A stretch of DNA of 64,000 nt from Chryseobacterium cheonjiense (GTDB lineage: Bacteria; Bacteroidota; Bacteroidia; Flavobacteriales; Weeksellaceae): positions 866,502 through 930,501 of the forward strand of contig NZ_JABBGF010000001.1 in the NCBI RefSeq assembly GCF_012927265.1, in the 5' to 3' direction. The position numbers and the translations under genes were made by a program. Every line of letters begins with the position of its first letter. The first letter of the stretch is position 1. This document shows, one piece after another, positions 15,655-31,630 of this stretch. The notes under the pieces were generated by a model. It did not search any database. It worked only from the letters and a program-made list of their open reading frames with translations, and had not been told where the DNA came from.

Positions 15655-15750
15655 TTACTGTTAATAATCTTCTAATCAGGCGTCATCAGCTTTTGAAAAG
15701 CGGTTGGGTAAGGAAGAACACCATTTCCTTTTGTTGGACAAAGATAAAAA

Positions 15751-18503: not shown

Positions 18504-18610
18504 GTGCTAGCCCGGATAGAAACGGCATCCTTTTGTTTTGTTTTCGGCGGGAGCGAAGCTCCCGCCGAAAACAAAACAAAAGATATAGTGGATAGCCGGA
18601 TTAAGCTCCT
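18504..18610. repeat. REP-like palindromic element, copy B
   Basis: A perfect inverted repeat with 25-bp arms (18530-18554 with 18558-18582) and a GAA loop. The base is TTTTGTTTTG-rich and the tip GGCGGGAGC. Flanks are AGCCCGGATAGAAACGGC on the left and AGTGGATAGCCGGATTAAGC on the right. These correspond to the flanks of copy A read on its minus strand, though the stem sequences are unrelated. It is followed at once by the gcvT terminator. Confidence 0.7.
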
Positions 18611-27597: not shown

Positions 27598-28092
27598 TTA
27601 TTTTTCAGACCAATCCGTACTATTGTATCCGTTTATTCCAATAAATTTTATCTTTTCAATTTTCATATTAGAAAAGAACTGCACAAAAGTATTATTCCAT
27701 TCACCATGATTTTGTAAAACCATATTGTTAATTTGATTAGGAATTTCATTTTCGAAAGTTATAGAAACCCAAGGGTACTGAAATGGATTATCTGTCGCCA
27801 CAGACCATAAGTCAGAGTCTTCAAAATATAATCTCAGAATATAATATTTAGAACTTGGATCAACTTTCGTATCGCAATCAATTTTTACAACATTTACTTG
27901 CTTATTCAACATTTCGTTATAAAAGACAGAAAAATTCTGTCCATAGAACTGTGTCTTTACATTTGCTAAAATATTAAGTTTTGGAACCAAATTATTGTAA
28001 AACGCAATATAATCGTTTACGGACTGTGATTTACAGGATAATGTAAATAGTAAACTTATAATGATTGAGATTTTAAAAAATATCGGTTTCAT
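27598..28092 (-). CDS. Tandem lipoprotein paralogue 3
   Basis: A 164-residue protein with a short hydrophobic signal and Cys at position 20 (TLSCKSQ), so probably a lipoprotein. The body starts VNDYIAFYNNLVPKL and ends MKIEKIKFIGINGYNSTDW. It shares length and layout with the two genes upstream but is the most diverged in its C-terminal part. Its first ~80 bases are nearly identical to those of paralogue 2. The start ATG directly abuts the stop of paralogue 2, with no spacing, so translation is probably coupled. The family is not recognised. It may be an immunity or ligand-binding protein; see findings. Confidence 0.65.
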   Translation of the reverse strand: MKPIFFKISIIISLLFTLSCKSQSVNDYIAFYNNLVPKLNILANVKTQFYGQNFSVFYNEMLNKQVNVVKIDCDTKVDPSSKYYILRLYFEDSDLWSVATDNPFQYPWVSITFENEIPNQINNMVLQNHGEWNNTFVQFFSNMKIEKIKFIGINGYNSTDWSEK

Positions 28093-28587
28093 TTATTTTA
28101 TAGTTCTATCCGGATTATTGTATCCATTAATGCCCACAAACTCTATTTTCTCTATTTTCATATTGGCAAAGAACTGTGCAATGGTAGCATTCCACCTGCC
28201 TTGACTTTGTATGCTCAACTGATCTATTTGTGATGGGATTTCATTTTGAAAGGTTATTGATATGAATGGTACTTGAAAGTGATTATCGATTCCAACACTC
28301 CATATTCTATTTTCCATTAAACGCAAGTCTATAACATAGTATTGTGTTCCAGGAATGACTCTAGGACTGCACATAAAAAATGTAATATCGATACTTTTGC
28401 TCTGTAAATAATTATAAAAATTAGAGAAATTTTTGTTATAATATTGTGTTTTATTAGGAACCATTGTATTGAGCTTGGGAACCAAATTATTGTAAAACGT
28501 AATATAATTGTTTACGGTCTGTGATTTACAGGATAATGTAAATAGTAAACTTATAATGATTGAGATTTTAAAAAATATCGCTTTCAT
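28093..28587 (-). CDS. Tandem lipoprotein paralogue 2 (mosaic)
   Basis: A 164-residue protein with a lipobox-type Cys at position 20. The N-terminal ~45 residues match paralogue 3 almost exactly at DNA level. The C-terminal third (QIDQLSIQSQGRWN then FANMKIEKIEFVGINGYNN) matches paralogue 1 almost exactly. The middle, about residues 45-105, is its own. The gene abuts both neighbours with no intergenic base. This mosaic pattern points to tandem duplication with gene conversion and a diversifying centre. Function unknown; position behind the JAMM lipoprotein gene suggests a cognate partner. Confidence 0.65.
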   Translation of the reverse strand: MKAIFFKISIIISLLFTLSCKSQTVNNYITFYNNLVPKLNTMVPNKTQYYNKNFSNFYNYLQSKSIDITFFMCSPRVIPGTQYYVIDLRLMENRIWSVGIDNHFQVPFISITFQNEIPSQIDQLSIQSQGRWNATIAQFFANMKIEKIEFVGINGYNNPDRTIK

Positions 28588-29082
28588 TTATTTTATAGTT
28601 CTATCCGGATTATTGTATCCATTAATCCCCACAAACTCTATTTTCTCTATTTTCATATTGGCAAAGAATTGGGCAATGGTAGGGTTCCACCTGCCTTGGC
28701 TTTGTATGCTCAACTGATCTATTTGTGATGGGATTTCATCTTGAAATGTTATTGATATAAAAGGTCTTCTGTAAGAATTTTCACTTGCAATTTTCCACAT
28801 ATCAAGTTCAATAAAATTTAAGTTTAAAACATAATATTGAATTCCGGGAATAACTTTTGGATAATAAGTAAAAGATATGATATTAATGCCATTGTTTTGG
28901 AGTTCTGTATTAAAATTGGAAAAATTTTGGTTATAATATTGAATTTTGTTGGGTACTAATGAATTTAGTTTAGGTACTAAATTATTATAAAATGTTATAT
29001 AGTCATTTGTTGTTTGTGACTTACAGCTATATATTAAAAGAAAATTTGTTACAACTAATATTTTTAATAATAATGTTTTCAT
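28588..29082 (-). CDS. Tandem lipoprotein paralogue 1
   Basis: First of three equal-length (164-residue) paralogues. The signal MKTLLLKILVVTNFLLIYSC puts a candidate lipidation Cys at position 20. It continues KSQTTNDYITFYNNLVPKLNSLVPNKIQYYNQNF. The C-terminal half has SYRRPFISITFQDEIPSQIDQL and ends GYNNPDRTIK, shared with paralogue 2. It begins 25 bases after the end of the JAMM lipoprotein frame. No database family comes to mind. Being exported and adjacent to an exported putative toxin fits an immunity role, by inference. Confidence 0.65.
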   Translation of the reverse strand: MKTLLLKILVVTNFLLIYSCKSQTTNDYITFYNNLVPKLNSLVPNKIQYYNQNFSNFNTELQNNGINIISFTYYPKVIPGIQYYVLNLNFIELDMWKIASENSYRRPFISITFQDEIPSQIDQLSIQSQGRWNPTIAQFFANMKIEKIEFVGINGYNNPDRTIK

Positions 29083-29107: not shown

Positions 29108-30844
29108 TTAAGGACATTTAGAAACTACAATTTTTTCATCTGGAAAGCCATTGGTAGTAGTTTGTTCTATTGATACATTTACTTTTTTTAAATTACCATT
29201 TGCATCTACTTTTGCAAGACTTATTCCCGCATTGTGCTTATCCAGAATATATGCTAACGCTAATGCATAGTCGTTATGGTTTTCACCTGAATTATTGCTT
29301 ATATTATTATGTTTGTAAATAGTTGTTATTCTATCAACATCATCATAGAAATCACTTTCCTTTTTAAACCAATGCGTAGCATCATCATAGTTTTCGCTTT
29401 TAGGAAAACTGCTGAAAAAAGTTCCTGCTAAATCTTTATCGGTTATTACAAGGGCATATACTTCCACACTACCGTTGTTTATCCCGTATACATAACTTTG
29501 CCTGTAATTCAGGTAGTTTACCTGTGACAATTGCAGTGTGCTGTAAAGATCCAATGCAGAAGGAGAGCCTCTTTTCTTGGCGTGGCTGTGGCCGGATGCA
29601 ATATATTTATTTCCCAGGTTGGCAGAGGGGAAATTGGAAGTTGTAGGAGTGCCTTCGTTGGGACCCTCTACCATATAATTTCCCGTAGCAATATCCAGCC
29701 CTACAGCAACAGCCCATTCATTCGGGGCATCTGCTTTTCCTTTTAATGCAGCATCCATCTGCGCCTTTACCGTTGGGTTTTTTAAAATAGCATTGGCTTT
29801 ATCAATAGATGGTTTTGTTTTTTTACAAGGGCTGTCCGCTGAAAGATATTGATTATAGAACTCTTCCCAAGTAGCATTAGGATGATCCATAAAATACTGT
29901 ACCGCTTGGTTATGGAAATTCAAATTTTCTGTATTGTTGGCAGTAGAATAATTGTTAAGGTAGCTCTCTATGATATTCTGGTAAATGCCTGCATTTCCAC
30001 TCGCCCACTGGTGCTATGTGGCTCCCGGAAGCTGCTCCGAAAACAGATATGCTCTCAGCGCTCTTACATAGCCTTCATCAGTAGAAGGCAGTACATTAGG
30101 ATCAAAAACATATCCGCTCGGGTCTGTAAGATATGCAGCAGAGCCACCCTCTGTAATAGGGTCTACAGGAGGCGGCGGACTGGAAGGGTTTCCGTTACTT
30201 GGGCCGCCAAAACCACCGGAGTTATCTCCGCCTCCACTTCCTACACACACTGTTAATGTTTCCAAACATTCAGGGCATTTGTCGCACGTATCCCAAGAAT
30301 GACCATTTTTGCAATGCCATACACTCACGCTGTAAGAAGCCAGGCAGTCTTCATAACTTGAGGTTTTGGCAACCGCATTTTTGTGAGAGTGTTTTTGGGC
30401 TGCGGAAGCCGCTTCGGAATCGTAAAGAACATAAGGAATATTCCCTATTATCCTTATAATAGAATAATGCAGCGTGCCGTCATTTCTCTTGCGGTATACC
30501 ATATTATAGACATCCTGGGGATTGCCGAACAGAGAATAGATTCTAAAGGCATAGGTAGAAATATCCCCATTGGCTTTAATACGGTTGATCGTTTCTGTAT
30601 CAATGAGGAATCCCGAAAGTGGGTCGTCATGCTGACTGTTTTTTTGTGCGGTACTTATCGGAGAAATTACCTCTCCAACTTTTTGAATCTGTGTTTCTTT
30701 TTGGAAAGCGGAAAAGGAAATAATATCCCGTTTTCTATTTGCAGAAGCTTCATTTAAAATATCCTGCTCATTCCTACAGGAAAATAAGGCAAGGAACACC
30801 GTTAATAAAAACAGCCATGAAATTTTCTTTCTCATCATTTGCAT
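29108..30844 (-). pseudogene. JAMM-motif lipoprotein gene split by an in-frame TAG
   Basis: One continuous minus-strand frame of 578 codons is broken only by a TAG at 30014-30016. The 5' part (30017-30844) encodes a lipoprotein signal (LALFSC, Cys 23), a linker, a Cys/His-rich stretch HCKNGHSWDTCDKCPEC and a Gly/Pro-rich hinge. After the TAG the frame stays open: 30 codons, then the C-terminal domain. That domain holds a full JAMM/MPN+ motif: Glu in NEWAVAVGLD, then H-S-H, seven residues, S, two residues, D. The 3' half has no ATG start, only a TTG at 29923. The parent gene most likely encoded one surface or periplasmic metalloprotease-like protein. A sequencing error at the TAG is possible. 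Confidence 0.7.
30014..30844 (-). CDS. N-terminal product of the interrupted JAMM lipoprotein
   Basis: If the TAG is real, this 276-residue product is what is made: signal and lipobox (M-R-K-K start at 30835 is also possible), a helical/strand segment with AFRIYSLFGNPQDVYNMVYRK and SIIRIIGNIPYVLYDS, the putative zinc-knuckle HCKNGHSWDTCDKCPEC, and a disordered GGGDNSGGFGGPSNGNPSSPPPP linker-like region (in part). The ending DEGYVRALRAYLFSEQLPGAT runs straight into the stop. This would be the binding and anchoring part without the catalytic domain. Whether it is stable or functional cannot be seen. Confidence 0.5.
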   Translation of the reverse strand: MQMMRKKISWLFLLTVFLALFSCRNEQDILNEASANRKRDIISFSAFQKETQIQKVGEVISPISTAQKNSQHDDPLSGFLIDTETINRIKANGDISTYAFRIYSLFGNPQDVYNMVYRKRNDGTLHYSIIRIIGNIPYVLYDSEAASAAQKHSHKNAVAKTSSYEDCLASYSVSVWHCKNGHSWDTCDKCPECLETLTVCVGSGGGDNSGGFGGPSNGNPSSPPPPVDPITEGGSAAYLTDPSGYVFDPNVLPSTDEGYVRALRAYLFSEQLPGAT

Positions 30845-31413: not shown

Positions 31414-31462
31414 AGCCAGGCTGAAAGCTGCAAATAATATCTAATCTTCCGGAAAGTTTGCC

Positions 31463-31630
31463 GTACCCTCGCGGGAAGTTTTCCGGAACACCGGGAAACC
31501 TCCACGCACCCCTGCAACGGCTTTTCCGGTAACCGGGAAAGGTTGTTGCACCCCTGCGACAAACTTTCCCGGAAGCAGGAAACCTTCTTGCACCCTCGCA
31601 ACAAGGTTTCCCGGAAAAACGCAAACAATG
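31463..31630 (+). repeat. Four tandem 42-43 bp repeats with internal dyads
   Basis: Units run 31463-31505, 31506-31547, 31548-31589 and 31590-31630. Each starts G(C/T)ACCC(C/T)(T/C)GC and contains a CTTTTCCGG...CCGGGAAAG-like dyad, so each can form a small hairpin. Identity between units is imperfect. The array is GC-rich in an AT-rich neighbourhood and fills the gap between the XRE gene and the DUF6261-like gene. All three minus-strand frames are open because the unit is near a multiple of three, but there is no start signal. Confidence 0.75.

What the first reader, a model, noticed from the sequence alone, without database searches (positions are those of the whole stretch)
30014..30016. 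Single in-frame TAG splits an otherwise intact 578-codon lipoprotein gene
The reading frame continues open through 30 codons and a complete JAMM domain after the TAG, and the second half has no ATG of its own. This looks like one recent nonsense change, a read-through stop, or a base error. The break separates the lipid anchor from the catalytic domain, so it would disarm a toxin while the partner genes downstream stay intact, a typical decay path for such systems.
Basis: seen in the sequence. Interest (0 to 1): 0.6.

Follow-up and report, generated by a model that had tools for sequence, protein, structure and literature searches.

The report
Nonsense-broken lipoprotein toxin gene
A single stop codon has cut a lipoprotein gene, probably an antibacterial toxin, in a Chryseobacterium genome while three neighbouring, probably protective genes remain whole; related species carry the gene uncut or broken elsewhere, so this looks like ordinary gene decay.

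Summary
The TAG at 30014-30016 (minus strand) is real. It ends a 276-residue lipoprotein; the frame then stays open for 301 codons holding a JAMM-type metalloprotease domain with all its conserved residues. The syntenic relative G110 has one uninterrupted 581-residue gene, and 40 of 53 JAMM loci compared (window included) are uninterrupted lipoprotein genes. Of the other 12, seven carry lesions elsewhere (in-frame stops, frameshifts), two are cut by contig ends, two have another front part, one is an orphan cassette. Both Chryseobacterium takakiae trunk copies are frameshifted too. Best reading: recent pseudogenization of an antibacterial polymorphic toxin. A base error cannot be excluded without reads. 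Read-through is unlikely: no suppressor tRNA among 58 of 59 tRNA matches typed. One detail of the finding is wrong: an in-frame ATG stands 42 codons after the stop, ahead of the JAMM domain, but its product would lack the signal peptide. Three intact lipoprotein genes follow, the likely immunity genes; their family follows the JAMM gene in 30 of 53 loci. Toxicity, immunity and delivery are inferred, not tested. Relatives of the trunk carry other ends, including Tae4 amidase, which points to the cell envelope as target.

The parts
30017..30844 (-). 276-residue lipoprotein trunk: signal peptide, lipobox, conserved N-terminal part
   Evidence: no Pfam family; 93% identical to G110 over residues 1-275
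30776..30844 (-). signal peptide up to the lipobox cysteine (residue 23), followed by an acidic residue at +4
   Evidence: sequence; acidic residue at +4 in 41 of 41 lipobox-bearing relatives
30014..30016 (-). in-frame TAG
   Evidence: sense codon in this column in G110 and both C. takakiae copies
29111..30013 (-). 301 sense codons after the stop: rest of the trunk, then JAMM domain
29888..29890 (-). first in-frame ATG after the stop (42nd codon); product would be 260 residues without signal peptide
29111..29842 (-). JAMM-type domain with E (29717-29719), H (29588-29590), H (29582-29584), S (29558-29560), D (29549-29551) and two flanking cysteines invariant in 35 of 35 rows
28588..29082 (-). 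lipoprotein, probable immunity gene 1 (164 residues)
28093..28587 (-). lipoprotein, probable immunity gene 2; 5' end like copy 3, 3' end like copy 1
27598..28092 (-). lipoprotein, probable immunity gene 3

Best explanation
A recent nonsense mutation has inactivated one polymorphic-toxin-like gene of a Chryseobacterium. The whole gene codes for a lipoprotein: an exported, lipid-anchored trunk carrying a C-terminal JAMM metalloprotease-like toxin domain, with lipoprotein immunity genes right behind it. Shown: the stop, the uninterrupted relatives, the conserved JAMM residues, the linkage to the lipoprotein genes, and other lesions in other members. Inferred: that the JAMM domain is toxic in the envelope of competing bacteria, that the lipoproteins protect against it, that lipid anchoring and surface exposure serve delivery, and that the stop leaves a harmless trunk fragment while the immunity genes go on protecting the cell.
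For: Single ORF of 581 residues in G110. Of 53 JAMM loci (window included; 54 of the 90 match rows), 40 are uninterrupted lipobox ORFs with the JAMM domain. Stop column sense in 3 of 3 close relatives. Window matches 18 of 18 columns that are at least 90% conserved in the other 34 aligned domains, and the trunk after the stop looks as constrained as before it (dN/dS 0.12 from 12 S and 7 N in 57 codons, against 0.21 from 18 S and 14 N in 205): the break is recent. Other lesions: in-frame TAG in the trunk (L169), in-frame TAG in the signal peptide (L168), in-frame TAA after the lipobox plus a TGA in the toxin part (L007), frameshifts (L021, L167, L134), A-run contraction at the start codon (L035); two frameshifted C. 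takakiae trunk copies. Lipoprotein immunity candidate downstream in 30 of 53. Trunk relatives with Tae4 amidase ends (E 4e-17 and 1.1e-14).
Against: No reads, so a base error is open. The window's JAMM domain by itself matches no Pfam family, and the best solved structure for the family profile is not significant (2kcq, E 0.17). In the close subfamily the window departs at 3 of 29 columns that are invariant in the 14 others, though relatives depart at 0 to 5 of theirs. The dN/dS counts are small, and part of the post-stop changes sit in a short mosaic tract. 23 of the 53 loci lack this immunity family downstream.
Confidence: 0.8

Rival explanations
1. Base-calling or assembly error: the true genome has a sense codon and the gene is whole.
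For: Everything around the stop is undamaged; no reads were available to check it.
Against: Real lesions of this kind recur in the family (7 of 52 other loci). The stop sits in a tract of clustered differences from G110 (15 of 45 bases in codons 271-285) part of which matches the C. takakiae C40 copy, so the tract is real allelic variation and not one isolated odd base.
Confidence: 0.12
2. The post-stop part is still made, from the ATG at 29888-29890 or by read-through of TAG, as a shorter cytoplasmic protein or a little full-length protein.
For: In-frame ATG ahead of the JAMM domain; the domain shows no decay. Orphan Rhs toxin ends in Salmonella can act as internal toxin-antitoxin pairs (PMC7043789, passages seen).
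Against: No CUA tRNA in 58 of 59 matches typed (one match, in L149, was not called by ARAGORN). The internal product would lack the signal peptide, while the partners are exported lipoproteins and so would not meet it. The two invariant cysteines flanking the domain suggest folding outside the cytoplasm (inference).
Confidence: 0.06
3. The two halves are natural separate genes.
For: The C. takakiae C40 copy also has separate front and back ORFs.
Against: There the cause is a one-base deletion upstream of this column, in another frame, and the column itself is sense. 40 of 53 loci are single genes.
Confidence: 0.02
4. The gene is broken, but it is not a toxin: a JAMM lipoprotein of another function with lipoprotein partners.
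For: No activity has been tested; no Pfam or NCBIfam toxin family is matched by the window's two halves above cut-off.
Against: Trunk shared between unrelated ends including Tae4, tight linkage to tandem recombining lipoproteins, orphan cassette in L006: the pattern of polymorphic toxins described in PMC3482391 (passages seen).
Confidence: 0.12

Closest known systems
Tox-JAB-1 / Imm65 of Bacteroidetes polymorphic toxins (Zhang et al. 2012, PMC3482391; passages seen)
   Different: Tox-JAB-1 is reported with N-terminal RHS repeats; here the front part is a lipobox trunk. No Pfam match ties the window's domain or partners to those models.
Tox-JAB-2 / DUF4329 (PMC3482391; Pfam PF14220)
   Same: E, H[ST]H, S, D residues; 9 of 35 aligned domains match DUF4329 at E up to 0.1, best 2e-5.
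   Different: The window's own domain does not match; the partner named in that paper is an NTF2-fold protein, not a lipoprotein.
SitA lipoprotein toxins of myxobacteria (PMC8546572, passages seen; PMC5562445, search listing only)
   Same: Lipoprotein with a conserved front part and exchangeable toxin end, immunity gene beside it.
   Different: SitA is delivered by TraA/B outer membrane exchange; no such route was looked for or is known to me in Chryseobacterium. Sequence relation to SitA was not tested.
Orphaned and broken toxin ends with kept immunity genes (bee gut Rhs and VgrG, PMC8125069, passages seen)
   Same: Toxin genes lost by nonsense mutation or displacement while immunity genes stay.
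   Different: Other secretion system and other toxin carriers.
Recombining tandem immunity genes (esaG, tipC; PMC9484751, abstract seen)
   Same: Tandem non-identical immunity paralogues that recombine through end blocks; copy 2 of the window is such a mosaic.
   Different: T7SS of firmicutes.

Membership tests
Pseudogene by nonsense mutation | Uninterrupted homologous gene across the same junction | tested here: met
   G110, 581 residues; 40 of 53 JAMM loci uninterrupted
Pseudogene by nonsense mutation | Stop confirmed in reads or in a second isolate | not testable with these tools
   no reads and no conspecific genome at hand; the one genome-contig scan gave only C. takakiae
Stop-codon recoding / suppression | Suppressor tRNA or conserved stop in homologues | tested here: not met
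   58 of 59 tRNA matches typed, none CUA; column sense in 3 of 3 relatives
JAMM/JAB superfamily | E, HxH, x7, S, xx, D | tested here: met
   E, first H, S and D invariant in 35 of 35 rows; second H in at least 90% (L003 has N)
JAMM/JAB superfamily | Profile or fold match | tested here: inconclusive
   Prok-JAB in 16 of 35 members at E up to 0.1 (best 7.5e-4), window none; 2kcq E 0.17; single-sequence model pLDDT 40.9, unusable
Polymorphic toxin system | Shared front part with exchangeable toxin ends | tested here: met
   JAMM variants, Tae4 and unassigned ends on related trunks
Polymorphic toxin system | Immunity gene directly downstream | tested here: met
   lipoprotein family downstream in 30 of 53 loci; protective function not tested
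Polymorphic toxin system | Toxicity neutralised by partner | not testable with these tools
   needs expression experiments
Tox-JAB-1 / Imm65 | Match to the family's models; RHS repeats in front | tested here: not met
   no Pfam match for domain or partners; front part is a lipobox trunk, not RHS. Whether Pfam holds a model for this clade is recalled, not checked
Bacteroidetes lipoprotein export signal (PMC5080379, passages seen) | C-X-K-(D/E)2-X after the lipobox cysteine | tested here: inconclusive
   acidic residue at +4 in 41 of 41 lipobox relatives and in the window, but no K at +3 and the second acid is often missing
SitA-like delivery | TraA/B-dependent outer membrane exchange | not tested
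   not searched

The most novel reading that the evidence does not exclude
The stop has turned one lipoprotein toxin gene into two usable parts: a lipid-anchored trunk without toxin and a free toxin cassette, started at the conserved internal methionine codon, kept under selection as a stored end that recombination can put back behind another trunk or as an internal growth regulator.
Probability: 0.05. Interest if true: 0.5.

Novelty: new member of a known kind. Interest (0 to 1): 0.25.

Why it matters
As a broken gene it matters little. It does lead to a genus-wide set of lipid-anchored, end-swapping toxin-like proteins in Chryseobacterium, with JAMM and Tae4 ends and lipoprotein partners, in which breakage is frequent (8 of the 53 loci, window included). 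Four searches of the paper library brought up no paper whose title or listed abstract describes such a family in this genus; papers outside the library, and bodies of papers not opened, were not checked. It gives a natural series of intact and broken alleles for asking what JAMM toxins do in the envelope.

Tried and rejected
Structure prediction of the post-stop piece on its own failed (pLDDT 40.9), so no fold search was run. No alignment-based fold was tried, because the tool admits relatives only from certain sources and mine came from the genome search. T6SS: VipB (PF05943) not found in the own genome; the Bacteroidota-type TssC (PF17541) is in 170 of 173 genus genomes, so co-occurrence says nothing about delivery, and the 14 control genomes rang in none for that family. 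Natural split, conserved stop and suppression were considered and rejected as told above. Position-of-lesion bias (front against toxin end) was considered, but the loci were found with the toxin end as query, so the count is biased and no claim is made. Rows left out: of the 90 match rows (53 loci) were examined; the other 36, trunk-only, short or partial matches, were not classified, and some of these may hold JAMM-like ends (G077, G158). A lipobox was judged by pattern, not by a trained predictor. The alignment A1 holds 34 of the 52 other loci.

Full report
What is there. The TAG at 30014-30016 on the minus strand follows 276 codons that start at 30844 with a signal peptide and lipobox, and is followed in the same frame by 301 sense codons. 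The window lies in a genome of the genus Chryseobacterium: the genome counted in its genus as G187 has a contig of the same length as the named C. takakiae record that was fetched. Same-frame neighbours are not rare in this window (8 cases with both sides of 150 or more codons, the other 7 ending in TAA), so homology has to carry the argument.

One gene, cut. The relative G110 has one ORF of 581 residues at the same place, followed by one lipoprotein gene of the family that follows the window's gene in three copies. DNA identity is about 91% from upstream of the gene to about codon 350; the JAMM domains behind are only 44% identical. In the codon alignment the stop column is a sense codon in G110 and in both C. 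takakiae copies. Of 53 JAMM loci (window included), 40 are uninterrupted ORFs with a lipobox and a JAMM domain, one of them (L003) with an altered HxH. The remaining 12 besides the window: seven lesions (next paragraph), two cut by contig ends (L038, L151), two with a front part of ferredoxin-like cysteine motifs and no lipobox (L160, L164), one orphan cassette (L006).

Breaks elsewhere. L169 has an in-frame TAG in the trunk, L168 an in-frame TAG in the signal peptide, L007 an in-frame TAA after the lipobox and a TGA in the toxin part, L021 and L167 frameshifts in the front part, L134 a frameshift in the toxin part, L035 a one-base shorter A-run at the start codon than its sister copy L169. 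L035 could also be a homopolymer sequencing error. The two C. takakiae trunk copies, which carry other ends, have a one-base insertion and a one-base deletion at different places. The lesions differ in kind and place, which fits loss of function and not a programmed stop.

Age of the break. The window matches 18 of 18 columns that are at least 90% conserved in the 34 other aligned domains; in the close subfamily it departs at 3 of 29. The trunk after the stop shows 12 synonymous and 7 non-synonymous changes on the window's lineage in 57 codons, before it 18 and 14 in 205. The counts are small, and some of the changes after the stop belong to a mosaic tract: the bases after the stop match the C. 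takakiae C40 copy better than the orthologues, and codons 271-285 differ from G110 at 15 of 45 bases. Recombination among trunk copies has touched the very place; whether the stop came with it is open.

Reading of the stop. 58 of 59 tRNA matches of the genome were typed and none has the anticodon CUA; the remaining match was not called as a tRNA.

What the whole gene is. The domain has the JAMM residues E, HxH, S, D; Prok-JAB is matched by 16 of 35 members and DUF4329 by 9 of 35 at E up to 0.1, the window's own by neither. Two cysteines at the domain's ends are invariant in 35 of 35, which I read as a disulphide formed outside the cytoplasm. Related trunks carry other ends: Tae4 amidase in C. 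takakiae and G089 (E 4e-17 and 1.1e-14), other histidine-rich domains and unassigned ones. Tae4 is known as a peptidoglycan amidase (established knowledge), which suggests the envelope as target. The lipoproteins behind the gene belong to a family that follows the JAMM gene in 30 of 53 loci, mostly within 50 bases. The three copies in the window are intact; copy 2 matches copy 3 in its first 90 bases (86 of 90) and copy 1 in its last 180 (168 of 180), a recombinant. An acidic residue at +4 after the lipobox cysteine is present in 41 of 41 lipobox relatives, reminiscent of the Bacteroidetes export signal (PMC5080379, passages) but without its lysine.

How it most likely works. Inferred: the lipoprotein is exported and displayed, its JAMM end cuts a substrate in the envelope of a touched competitor, and the lipoprotein partners protect the producer. 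The stop leaves a trunk without toxin; a product from the internal ATG would stay in the cytoplasm, away from the exported partners. The delivery route is unknown; a Bacteroidota-type TssC is present here, but also in 170 of 173 genomes of the genus.

Comparison. The closest described pairs are Tox-JAB-1 with Imm65, whose immunity protein has a lipobox, and Tox-JAB-2 (PMC3482391, passages); SitA is the closest analogue in design (PMC8546572, passages). Loss of toxin genes by nonsense mutation and retention of immunity genes is described for bee gut bacteria (PMC8125069, passages). The finding is therefore an ordinary broken member of a known kind of system.

Noticed in passing
window 27598-29082: Three tandem lipoprotein genes of 495 bases each with no bases between them; copy 2 is a mosaic of copy 3 (5' end) and copy 1 (3' end).
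   Followed up: partly
window 29111-29842 and the relatives of alignment A1: Two cysteines flanking the JAMM domain are invariant in 35 of 35 rows, suggesting a disulphide.
   Followed up: no
L160 (332-residue ORF) and L164 (328-residue ORF): JAMM domain behind a front part with two ferredoxin-like cysteine motifs and no lipobox: an odd carrier for such a domain.
   Followed up: no
L035 and L169 (same genome G100): A-run right after the start codon has 7 A in one copy and 8 in the other, shifting the start out of frame; slippage-prone tract or sequencing error.
   Followed up: partly
window codons around 30014, tract of about 30 bases after the stop: Sequence there matches the C. takakiae C40 trunk copy better than the orthologues: signs of gene conversion between trunk copies.
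   Followed up: partly
window 31440-31630: Repetitive G+C-rich stretch between the HTH gene and the next gene, seen by eye.
   Followed up: no
window 18505-18606 (+) and 15670-15737 (-): Flavo-1 RNA and a fluoride riboswitch above Rfam gathering scores.
   Followed up: no
L006: JAMM end without trunk, behind another short toxin-end and lipoprotein pair: an orphan cassette array.
   Followed up: no
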